From Acidimicrobiaceae bacterium (lineage in GTDB: Bacteria; Actinomycetota; Acidimicrobiia; Acidimicrobiales; Aldehydirespiratoraceae), in contig JAPOYA010000001.1 of NCBI GenBank assembly GCA_026706815.1, positions 1 to 64,000 of the forward strand: a stretch of 64,000 nt of DNA, given 5' to 3'. The translations under genes and the position numbers were made by a program. This document shows positions 11,968 through 19,009 of the stretch, in pieces. Under the pieces are notes generated by a model that made no database searches, had not been told where the DNA came from, and worked only from the letters and a program-made list of their open reading frames with translations. Numbering within the stretch: the stretch's first letter is position 1; the number at the start of each line of letters is the position of its first letter.

Positions 11968-11993
11968 TTTACTATAAATATAGTTATAGTAAA
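11968..11993. promoter_or_regulatory. AT-rich palindrome (tttactata-N8-tatagtaaa) upstream of the DUF234-type ATPase gene
   Basis: Perfect 9-bp arms 11968-11976 / 11985-11993, with nested tatagt direct repeats. Confidence 0.7.
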
Positions 11994-12016
11994 TCTAGTT
12001 ATAAAGCGAGCGATAA

Positions 12017-13519
12017 ATGAGCGCACCGGTCAGACCAAACAGCCTCTACGACCGAGAGGCCGAATGGGAAGACCTGTCGCGTTTCGCTGCCTCGGTGTCG
12101 GGCCTCCGATTGGGCATCGTGTACGGCCGCCGCCGCTTCGGCAAGAGCTTTCTGCTGCGCCGTCTCGTGGAAGCGATGGACGGCGTGTACCATCTGGCGC
12201 TGCGCGAAGAGCGCAGACCTGCGCTGGAGAGGTTCGCCGGCAGTCTCAGGCGACAGCTTCAGTGGGCACCGCTGCAGCCGTTCCGGGACTGGACCGACGC
12301 CCTGGAACAGGCGGTAGGCGTCTTGGGCGCTCGCGGGACCCGACCGCAGCTCTTGGTGATCGACGAGTATCCCCACCTCAGCCAGAACAATCCCGATCTG
12401 GACTCGGCGATCCAGGCGTTGATGGACGAAGCCGCGGCAGGGCGCCTGGCTGAGCGCTGGACAGCACCGGTGGGCGTCGTCCTATGCGGTTCGGCCATGT
12501 CGGTGATGACGCAAATCCTCAGCGGTGCTTCGCCAATGCGAGGCCGCGCGTCACTGGACATGGCGTTGGCCGCGTTCGACTACCGACAAGCCCGCGGCTA
12601 TTGGGGCATCGACGACCTGAGGGCGGCGTTCGCGATCGACACGGTGGTGGGCGGTGCTGCTGGCTACAAGGACCTGACCTCCGACGCTGGAATCCCCGAG
12701 AGTTCCGACGATCTGCCTGCGTGGCTGGCGGCGACGGTCCTGAACCCGTCCCATGCCTTGTTCCGAGAAGACGAGTACCTGTTGCGAGAGGATCCAAGGG
12801 TCACCGGTGAGGCTGTCTACTACTCCGTGCTCGGTGCCGTCGCCGACGGACGGACGACGCCGACCAAGATCGCCGAAGCGCTTGGGAGGACCCCCAACGA
12901 CATCAGCCACCACCTGGGGGTGATGACCACCGCCGGCTTCGTCGTGCGCCACGAGGACCTTCTGGCGGATCGCCGGCCACAGTACCGTGTCGCCGATCCG
13001 ATTGTGCGATTCCACCACTTGGTCAACCGGCGTCACCGTGCCCGTCTGGAGGACCGCCGCGGGCCTGAGGTGTGGGCCGAAGCCGAGGCCGCGTACCGCG
13101 CGGGGATCGCCGGGCCGCACTTCGAGTCGATGTGCCGGTTGTGGACAGACCGCTATGCCTCCGAAGCTACCCTTGGCAGCCCGGCGGGTCCGTCGGCCTC
13201 ATTGCAGGTGAACGACCGCCGTGCGCGTCAATCGTTCGAGTTGGACGTGGTAGCGCTCCGGCGCGGTTCACACGCGGGCGGCGTCAAGACCGTCCAGCTG
13301 ATCGGAGAGGCGAAGGTCCGTCAACTCGACATCGGCGCCTTGGAGCGCCTCGACCGCCTTGGCGACATACTGGCCGGCCGCTCGGGCGTCATCCTGTCGC
13401 CGTCTGCCAAACGCCTGCTGTTCTCCGCGCGTGGATTCACCCCGGCCCTCGTCGCCGCCGCCGGAACTCGTCGCGATGTAGAGCTCGTCGATCTCGCCCG
13501 CCTGTACGAAGGCAACTGA
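12017..13519 (+). CDS. Archaeal-type AAA ATPase with C-terminal DUF234 / PD-(D/E)XK-like region
   Basis: Walker A GRRRFGKS, LLVIDEYPHL Walker B, wHTH-like TPTKIAEALGRTPNDISHHLGVMTTAGFV, C-term ELDVVALRRG...LIGEAKVRQLD. Confidence 0.8.
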   Translation: MSAPVRPNSLYDREAEWEDLSRFAASVSGLRLGIVYGRRRFGKSFLLRRLVEAMDGVYHLALREERRPALERFAGSLRRQLQWAPLQPFRDWTDALEQAVGVLGARGTRPQLLVIDEYPHLSQNNPDLDSAIQALMDEAAAGRLAERWTAPVGVVLCGSAMSVMTQILSGASPMRGRASLDMALAAFDYRQARGYWGIDDLRAAFAIDTVVGGAAGYKDLTSDAGIPESSDDLPAWLAATVLNPSHALFREDEYLLREDPRVTGEAVYYSVLGAVADGRTTPTKIAEALGRTPNDISHHLGVMTTAGFVVRHEDLLADRRPQYRVADPIVRFHHLVNRRHRARLEDRRGPEVWAEAEAAYRAGIAGPHFESMCRLWTDRYASEATLGSPAGPSASLQVNDRRARQSFELDVVALRRGSHAGGVKTVQLIGEAKVRQLDIGALERLDRLGDILAGRSGVILSPSAKRLLFSARGFTPALVAAAGTRRDVELVDLARLYEGN

Positions 13520-13530
13520 ATAGAGCGGTC

Positions 13531-17700: not shown

Positions 17701-18953
17701 GGCGATCTGAGCCAGTGGTCGGCGGGTTCGGAGAGGAACTCGTGCAACGGCACGCCCGTATCGCCGACGACGATGGAATCCGACGCAGAGAACCTGCGCT
17801 CGAATTCCATCATGCTCGAGTGTCGAGGGCGGCTGCGACCGGCTTTGACTTCGATGCCGACGAGGCGGGGACCTCGCTGCAGAACGAAGTCGACCTCTTG
17901 GCCGCCGTCTCGCCAGTATCTGACATTGGTCGCCGACGAGGCGGTGTTGACTAGGTGCGCGCCCACTGCACTCTCAACGATCCGTCCCCAGTGGTGGCGA
18001 TCCTCTCTGGAGTCGTCGAAGTCGAGGCCGACGACGGCTGACATGAGAGCCGTGTTGAGAACATTCAGCTTCGGCGACGAGGAACGTTGCTGGAGGGGTG
18101 TGCCGGAATGCTTGAAGAGGCCGGTGAGCAGACCGGCAGCAGACAGGAATCTGAGGTAACGCGCGAGCGTCGACTCATGGCCCGCGTCTTCGAGTCGTCC
18201 GCGCATCTTCTTGTATGAGAGTTCTTGCCCCGAATACATGCAGCCCAGTTCAAGAAGTTGCCGCAACAGAGCGGGCTTGTCGACACGGGCCATCCCCAGG
18301 ATGTCGCGTTCTAGGTGCGGCTCGATCAGCGCATCGGTGACGTAGGCCCGCCAGCGCTCAAAATTGCTTCGCATGCCGGCTGCGCCGGGGTAGCCGCCGT
18401 AGAAGACGAATTCATCGCAGTCGAATCCGAAAGCACCGCGCATCTCATCGAACGACCAGTGTGTGGCACGAATCCGCTCGAACCGGCCTGCGAGGCTCTC
18501 TGTGAGGTCAGCTTCGATTCGCATTGGGGCTGAGCCGAGAACAACGACATGCAGCGGACACCCTGACACCCGGTCGGCGTCCCAGAGTCCTTTGACCGTT
18601 TCGGACCACTGGGGGATCTTCTGTATTTCGTCAAGCACCAGCACGAATTTTGAACCGAATCTTGCAGCCTCTTCAGCACACTGCTGCCAGACCCCCACCA
18701 GCCATTCGGTGCCCCGCGGAGACGCCGCTGAGCGAACTTCGGCCACCGCCGGTCTGACTGGACCAGCCGGCTCGCGGGCGGGTGGCTGGTCCACGGCCTC
18801 GTAGCGGAACGGATACGGGACTTTGGCCAGGGCTTGGTGGACGATCGTTGTTTTGCCGCATTGCCGTGGGCCGAAGATCGCGATAATCCGCGAAACAGGT
18901 TCGTTCAACCGCTCAACCAGCGCGTCCACCTGTGATCGTTCGTAGCTCTGCAT
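17697..18953 (-). CDS. AAA ATPase with DUF4143 C-terminus (PD-(D/E)XK-like)
   Basis: IIAIFGPRQCGKTT Walker A, VLVLDEIQKIPQW Walker B, C-term QEVDFVLQRGPRLVGIEVKAGRSR. Confidence 0.9.
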   Translation of the reverse strand: MQSYERSQVDALVERLNEPVSRIIAIFGPRQCGKTTIVHQALAKVPYPFRYEAVDQPPAREPAGPVRPAVAEVRSAASPRGTEWLVGVWQQCAEEAARFGSKFVLVLDEIQKIPQWSETVKGLWDADRVSGCPLHVVVLGSAPMRIEADLTESLAGRFERIRATHWSFDEMRGAFGFDCDEFVFYGGYPGAAGMRSNFERWRAYVTDALIEPHLERDILGMARVDKPALLRQLLELGCMYSGQELSYKKMRGRLEDAGHESTLARYLRFLSAAGLLTGLFKHSGTPLQQRSSSPKLNVLNTALMSAVVGLDFDDSREDRHHWGRIVESAVGAHLVNTASSATNVRYWRDGGQEVDFVLQRGPRLVGIEVKAGRSRPRHSSMMEFERRFSASDSIVVGDTGVPLHEFLSEPADHWLRSP

Positions 18954-18973
18954 AACACCAGTTTAACAGGTTT

Positions 18974-19009
18974 ATTATGTTCCTGCGCAAATTTGCGCAG
19001 GAACATAAT
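18974..19009. promoter_or_regulatory. Perfect 36-bp palindrome attatgttcctgcgcaaa|tttgcgcaggaacataat
   Basis: Left arm 18974-18991 is the exact reverse complement of 18992-19009; 20 bp upstream of the DUF4143 ATPase start. Confidence 0.95.

What the first reader, a model, noticed from the sequence alone, without database searches (positions are those of the whole stretch)
11968..19009. Three neighbouring genes each fuse a P-loop NTPase to a PD-(D/E)XK-like C-terminus
Within 7 kb lie a DUF234-type ATPase (+; GRRRFGKS ... LIGEAK), the NACHT-like giant (-; GEPGSGKT ... PIEIKK) and a DUF4143-type ATPase (-; GPRQCGKT ... GIEVK). The giant and the DUF4143 gene overlap by 4 nt (17697-17700), implying translational coupling, and the DUF234 gene ends 11 nt from the giant's stop in convergent orientation. 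DUF4143 and DUF234 ATPases are widespread but functionally obscure. Finding both beside a NACHT nuclease suggests a composite locus, either one multi-gene system or a small defence island.
Basis: partly seen in the sequence, partly recalled or inferred. Interest (0 to 1): 0.82.

Follow-up and report, generated by a model that had tools for sequence, protein, structure and literature searches.

The report
Two-gene NLR-like nuclease operon, self-operator predicted
Two of the three neighbouring genes form a conserved two-gene unit found across many bacterial phyla: a DNA-binding ATPase that probably controls its own promoter, followed by a giant NLR-like nuclease related to a known anti-phage protein; the third gene is there by chance.

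Summary
The coordinates, overlap and motifs are correct. Two of the three genes belong together. The 1389-aa protein is an EruA-like NACHT/STAND NTPase, variable middle, C-terminal PD-(D/E)XK (NCBIfam antiphage_EruA 801.6 bits, below its 1000-bit cut-off). An intact DUF4143 ATPase of one subfamily lies directly upstream, same strand, in 72 of 77 related loci from many phyla; 56 allow the same 4-nt overlap. The two genes' distances correlate (r = 0.80) and they crossed phyla together. No other neighbour recurs.

The DUF234 gene is chance: none in the 80 loci; its orthologues sit on other contigs in same-genus genomes.

Its core TTGAGTAA-N2-TTACTCAA recurs at this gene's promoter across phyla, paired or solo. 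In one four-member clade the core became CTGCGCAA and the predicted recognition helix changed N-T-T to H-E-S.

Best reading: a self-regulated two-gene defence module; a new DUF4143-coupled variant of EruA-type NACHT systems. Defence, autoregulation and nuclease activity are inferred.

The parts
18974..19009 (.). 36-bp perfect palindrome ATTATGTTCCTGCGCAAATTTGCGCAGGAACATAAT, predicted operator, 20 nt upstream of the DUF4143 start
   Evidence: Sequence; related palindromes at the DUF4143 promoter in 57 of 72 paired loci and most solo relatives, rare in controls
18954..18973 (-). short leader between palindrome and ATG holding a -10-like TGTTAAACT, suggesting a promoter overlapped by the palindrome and a nearly leaderless transcript (inference by eye)
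   Evidence: Sequence; similar T-A-N-N-N-T element at this place in several actinobacterial relatives. The sigma-70 consensus scan did not report it
17697..18953 (-). DUF4143 protein, 418 aa: AAA_14 ATPase (Walker A 28-35, Walker B D108-E109), winged HTH (about 227-298; recognition helix 257-272), C-terminal PD-(D/E)XK (E327, D355, E368, K370)
13531..17700 (-). Giant, 1389 aa: NACHT/STAND NTPase (GEPGSGKT 43-50, IDGLDE 90-95), variable helical middle about 400-1200, PD-(D/E)XK nuclease about 1250-1389 (E1279, D1289, E1302, K1304, Q1318)
17697..17700 (-). 4-nt stop/start overlap ATGA coupling the two genes
   Evidence: a start codon giving the same overlap exists in 56 of 72 related loci
12017..13519 (+). 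DUF234-type (PF01637) ATPase; bystander, NOT part of the unit

Best explanation
A self-regulated two-gene anti-MGE module. Gene 1 (DUF4143: AAA+ ATPase, winged HTH, PD-(D/E)XK) binds as a dimer or higher oligomer to the palindrome in its own promoter and holds the operon low. Gene 2, translationally coupled to it, is an NLR-like receptor-effector: the variable helical middle senses an invader product, the NACHT domain binds nucleotide and oligomerises, and the C-terminal PD-(D/E)XK domain cuts nucleic acid, restricting the invader or killing the cell. SHOWN by computation: conserved pairing, gene order, coupling, distance correlation and co-transfer, conserved active sites in both proteins, variable middle, and the palindrome tied to this DUF4143 subfamily. 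INFERRED: autorepression, phage as trigger, nuclease activity, and whether the DUF4143 protein also licenses or helps the giant physically.
For: Pairing in 72/77 loci with room upstream; two further loci carry frameshifted DUF4143 remnants. Mirror correlation 0.80 against a permutation maximum of 0.23 over 68 pairs. Joint cross-phylum moves: L031 with L032 and L029 with L014 group together in both gene trees. No third gene recurs beside the pair. Giant: NTPase and C-terminus about 45-48% mean pairwise identity, middle 28%, as expected of a sensor between conserved engine parts. At the same chromosomal site in the genus the pair is intact (G003), absent (G005) or broken (G001); flanks are 91-94% identical while the giant is 62% and DUF4143 76%. 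Giant related to NCBIfam antiphage_EruA. Operator: core in 57/72 paired loci and 19/25 solo relatives, 0/13 solo EruA, 3/376 clean controls, one site elsewhere in 1.24 Mb once mis-called starts are allowed for; outer arms complementary within a locus 0.70 against 0.50 when shuffled, maximum 0.555. CTGCGC operators occur exactly in the four HES-helix proteins.
Against: No experiment. The giant is under the EruA cut-off. The operator/helix switch is one clade, so one evolutionary event; NET-helix proteins keep the TGAGTA core, so residue 260 alone does not decide. About 15 of 72 loci lack a clear core; some are cut contigs, variants or mis-called starts. Among immediate neighbours each PADLOC family shown matches only one locus, so defence-island support is weak. 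Four giants within the pair's own 81-row clade have no DUF4143 at all (L034, L074, L086, L103), so the giant may sometimes work alone.
Confidence: 0.6

Rival explanations
1. The pair is a defence module, but the palindrome is not bound by the DUF4143 protein: it is an RNA or DNA hairpin in the leader, or is read by an unlinked host regulator.
For: Long perfect arms whose sequence differs between loci are what a hairpin or cruciform would select for; in some proteobacterial loci the palindrome ends within a few bases of the ATG.
Against: A conserved core sequence (TGAGTA) and fixed spacing across phyla point to protein recognition; the site follows the DUF4143 gene with or without the giant, and a shared host regulator across so many phyla is unlikely; one clade changed helix and core together.
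Confidence: 0.2
2. The unit is a selfish or toxin-antitoxin-like stability element: DUF4143 is the autorepressing antitoxin-like partner, the giant the toxin; phage resistance is incidental.
For: Predicted autoregulated two-gene layout with the small regulator first and coupled translation; patchy, broken copies.
Against: Solo DUF4143 and solo EruA-type giants both exist, so neither strictly needs the other; EruA is catalogued by NCBI as an antiphage protein.
Confidence: 0.15
3. Three-gene composite system including the DUF234 ATPase.
For: Convergent gene 11 nt away with a similar ATPase plus nuclease-like layout and its own upstream inverted repeat.
Against: Absent next to all 80 related loci; elsewhere in the genomes of same-genus relatives; different G+C.
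Confidence: 0.03
4. The palindromes are only a mutational by-product (quasipalindrome correction by template switching) around a short site.
For: Perfection of outer arms varies from locus to locus.
Against: Position, core sequence and spacing are conserved across phyla and tied to one gene subfamily.
Confidence: 0.05

Closest known systems
EruA (NCBIfam NF058535, NACHT domain-containing antiphage protein)
   Same: Full-length similarity (801.6 bits), same NTPase and the same C-terminal E/D/ExK/Q motif
   Different: Below the family's 1000-bit cut-off; window clade carries an upstream DUF4143 partner, while the plasmid homologues over the cut-off (L106, L107) have none upstream. No paper on EruA as an antiphage protein is in the held library
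PDC-S01 (PADLOC candidate defence family; DUF4143 ATPases)
   Same: DUF4143 protein matches model PDLC04791 over its full length, 498 bits
   Different: Described as a single-gene candidate system (PMC12988326); here it is half of a conserved two-gene operon with an operator-like site
HyoA (NCBIfam NF058534)
   Same: Related NACHT giant, 195.5 bits
   Different: Far below its 1200-bit cut-off
Avs / bNACHT bacterial NLR-like proteins
   Same: STAND NTPase joined to a putative sensor and a nuclease
   Different: Nuclease at the C-terminus, not the N-terminus, and a dedicated ATPase partner (architecture of Avs/bNACHT from own knowledge)

Membership tests
EruA (NF058535) | Score at or above the curated 1000-bit cut-off | tested here: not met
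   801.6 bits; solo relatives L106, L107, L086 and L074 score 1039-1321
EruA (NF058535) | Full-length collinear architecture | tested here: met
   Residues 29-1385 against profile 17-1316 of 1318
EruA (NF058535) | Antiphage activity | not testable with these tools
   Needs a plaque assay
NACHT/STAND NTPase | Walker A and IDGLDE-type Walker B | tested here: met
   G46, G48, K49 and D91, L93-E95 invariant in 68 proteins
NACHT/STAND NTPase | Match to a Pfam NTPase domain model above its cut-off | tested here: inconclusive
   Only nSTAND3 at 15.8 bits against a cut-off of 27.2
PD-(D/E)XK nuclease (giant C-terminus) | E...D...ExK core and fold | tested here: met
   E1279, D1289, E1302, K1304 in at least 67/68; model pLDDT 90; fold matches weak (best E 0.017) but the leading ones are PD-(D/E)XK enzymes
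PDC-S01 | Match to a PDC-S01 model | tested here: met
   PDLC04791 498 bits
PDC-S01 | Single-gene system | tested here: not met
   72/77 loci paired with the giant; a separate clade of PDLC04791 proteins is indeed solo
Avs/bNACHT | N-terminal effector before the NTPase | tested here: not met
   P-loop at residues 43-50, nuclease motifs at 1279-1318
DUF234 three-gene composite | DUF234 gene recurs beside the giant | tested here: not met
   0 of 80 loci; unlinked in same-genus genomes

The most novel reading that the evidence does not exclude
DUF4143 ATPases as a class are self-addressed DNA-binding ATPase-nucleases: each gene carries its own private recognition site at its promoter (a palindrome in the PDLC04791 subfamily, 23-bp-period direct repeats in others), and in this branch the site-bound ATPase acts as the switch that licenses a NACHT nuclease when invader activity disturbs it.
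Probability: 0.25. Interest if true: 0.88.

Novelty: new variant of a known kind. Interest (0 to 1): 0.7.

Why it matters
PDC-S01/DUF4143 is reported as the fourth most common defence call across prokaryotes yet is unvalidated and treated as single-gene (PMC12988326). Here one branch is shown to be the dedicated partner of an EruA-like NACHT nuclease, and the subfamily is tied to a specific DNA site. That gives a concrete biochemical handle (a 36-bp probe) and a concrete two-gene construct for testing a large, obscure protein family.

Tried and rejected
DUF234 as a third component: rejected. Other recurrent neighbours: none in more than 5 of 72 loci. Defence-island context: weak, scattered single PADLOC matches only, and none specific in the window. 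BAF-like match of the giant (residues 1092-1162, E 0.007): not pursued, likely chance. Foldseek of the DUF4143 model gave Cdc6/Orc, RuvB and plant-NLR ATPases, consistent with AAA+ plus winged HTH but not specific. Sigma-70 promoter scan: near background, uninformative. Literature for EruA/HyoA as antiphage proteins and for DUF4143 with NACHT: nothing in the held library. No EruA relative found in E. coli genomes by DNA search with two plasmid homologues. Early palindrome counts were blurred by too-long ORF starts and by divergent control genes sharing the promoter; corrected.

Full report
Observation. The three ORFs, the 4-nt overlap at 17697-17700 and the 11-nt convergent gap are exactly as described. 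Domain searches give DUF4143 plus AAA_14 for the 418-aa protein and ATPase_2 (PF01637) for the 500-aa protein, PADLOC PDC-S01 and PDC-S27 respectively, and for the 1389-aa protein a full-length match to NCBIfam antiphage_EruA, 801.6 bits against a cut-off of 1000, with weaker similarity to HyoA. G+C drops to 0.58-0.61 across the giant and DUF4143 but not across the DUF234 gene.

The unit is two genes. From an alignment of 45 homologues, 80 genome loci from many phyla were fetched. Of 77 with room upstream, 72 have an intact DUF4143 gene directly upstream on the same strand, two have frameshifted remnants and three have none; 56 of 72 allow the same 4-nt overlap with the giant. DUF4143 domains are frequent in this genome (about 20 hits), but the partner is one special subfamily: the genome's other tested DUF4143 proteins reach at most 86 bits with the partner profile, while the partners score several hundred. 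Distances of partner and giant correlate (r = 0.80, permutation maximum 0.23, 68 pairs). Cross-phylum moves such as L031 (Gammaproteobacteria) beside L032 (Dehalococcoidia), and L029 (Chloroflexi) beside L014 (same family as the window), appear in both gene trees. Apart from the pair, no neighbour family recurs in more than 5 of 72 loci.

Boundaries. The 10 plasmid-borne giants examined (Vibrio, Pantoea, Bradyrhizobium, Rhizobium, Burkholderia, Paracoccus, Agrobacterium) have no upstream DUF4143 and fall on the other side of a 100% branch. Conversely, 25 actinobacterial PDLC04791-type DUF4143 genes without a giant form a single 100% clade. Pairing is therefore a lineage property on both gene trees. 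In 296 genomes of the class the partner occurs in 7 and the giant in 6; broken giants are common.

DUF234 is a bystander. None of the 80 loci has it. In the same genus, at the same chromosomal site between the luciferase-like gene and the membrane-protein gene, G003 has the pair without DUF234, G005 has no pair (an ImuA/ImuB-like pair sits there, named by eye), and G001 has a broken giant and no DUF4143. DUF234 orthologues are on other contigs in G003, G002 and G004. Between the window genome and G003 the flanking proteins are 94% and 91% identical, DUF4143 76% and the giant 62%.

Anatomy. Giant: invariant Walker A and DGLDE Walker B, a middle of only 28% mean pairwise identity between blocks at about 45% and 48%, and a C-terminal E1279/D1289/E1302-x-K1304/Q1318 signature. 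The AlphaFold model of the C-terminus (pLDDT 90) has no significant PDB match, but the leading ones are PD-(D/E)XK enzymes. DUF4143: model pLDDT 90.7; AAA+ core, a three-helix-plus-hairpin winged HTH at about 227-298 (read from the secondary structure), then PD-(D/E)XK with E327, D355, E368-x-K370 conserved.

An operator-like palindrome. At 18974-19009 lies a perfect 36-bp palindrome, 20 nt before the DUF4143 ATG; its 24-bp centre is unique in the window. Scoring the core TTGAGTAA-N2-TTACTCAA, at least 13 of 16 positions match in 49/70 paired promoters, 19/25 solo PDLC04791 promoters, 0/13 solo EruA promoters and 0/11 other DUF4143 promoters. After removing controls that share the DUF4143 promoter the background is 3/376, and two of those three are sites that belong to DUF4143 genes with mis-called starts (L043, L070). 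Allowing for such starts, 57/72 paired loci have the site, and only one site of at least 14/16 lies elsewhere in 1.24 Mb. Arms outside the core differ between loci but stay complementary: 0.70 within locus against 0.50 shuffled, maximum 0.555 in 2000. In the clade of window, G003, G004 and L049 both half-sites changed to CTGCGCAA, and these are exactly the proteins whose recognition helix reads H-E-S instead of N-T-T/V at 259-261. This is one event, so it is suggestive and not proof. The simplest reading is that the DUF4143 protein binds its own promoter.

Mechanism. I commit to a self-regulated two-gene anti-MGE module: DUF4143 as autoregulator and possible licensing ATPase, the giant as NLR-like sensor and nuclease. 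Conserved pairing, order, active sites and site association are shown; regulation, trigger, nuclease activity and protection are inferred.

Literature. PDC-S01 is reported as the fourth most common defence call in prokaryotes, single-gene, largely unvalidated, ATPase fused to PD-(D/E)XK (PMC12988326); it is also among the most abundant calls in rumen genomes (PMC13356809). I found no paper linking DUF4143 with NACHT proteins or describing these promoter sites, but the library is partial and the origin of the EruA name could not be read.

Noticed in passing
Own genome, loci L003, L004, L006, L007, L197, L199, L201-L204 (upstream 110 bp of DUF4143 starts): Other DUF4143 genes carry gene-specific direct repeats with a period of exactly 23 bp just upstream (e.g. 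L203 GCTCCGAACGCTGCTATGCTAAC); 10 of 16 own-genome genes at shuffle p<=0.02, rank test against control genes p=3e-7. In relatives 9 of 27, seven at 23 bp, where the rank test is only borderline (p=0.05).
   Followed up: partly
window 11959-12002: The DUF234 gene has its own imperfect AT-rich inverted repeat ATAACTGCATTTACTATAAATATAGTTATAGTAAATCTAGTTAT at -58, and the G002 orthologue (L167) has a 25-bp-period repeat; perhaps the same kind of self-site.
   Followed up: partly
G000-G009: DUF4143 genes are strongly expanded in this genus and family: 9 to 39 matches per genome in the six same-genus genomes, 0 in some near relatives.
   Followed up: no
L173-L196, L128, L129: Solo PDLC04791 genes carry a four-half-site version of the palindrome (TTACTCA-n6-TTGAGTAA-nn-TTACTCAA-n6-TGAGTAA); the L190-L196 group appears to use shifted sites such as TTTTGCTAGGATATCCTAGCAAAA.
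   Followed up: partly
L107 (Paracoccus plasmid): An EruA over the NCBI cut-off (1321 bits) has a DUF4143 gene of another subfamily (PDLC04790) directly downstream: possible independent pairing.
   Followed up: no
L051:12114-12131: The only operator-like site away from a DUF4143 promoter lies 55 bp after the giant's stop.
   Followed up: no
G001, G215, G274: Broken giants; in G001 a deletion joins the palindrome region to about codon 120 of the giant, removing DUF4143.
   Followed up: partly
Homologues P0001-P0120: Nearly all carry precomputed Pfam PF28130, a model that the held Pfam copy did not report for the giant.
   Followed up: no
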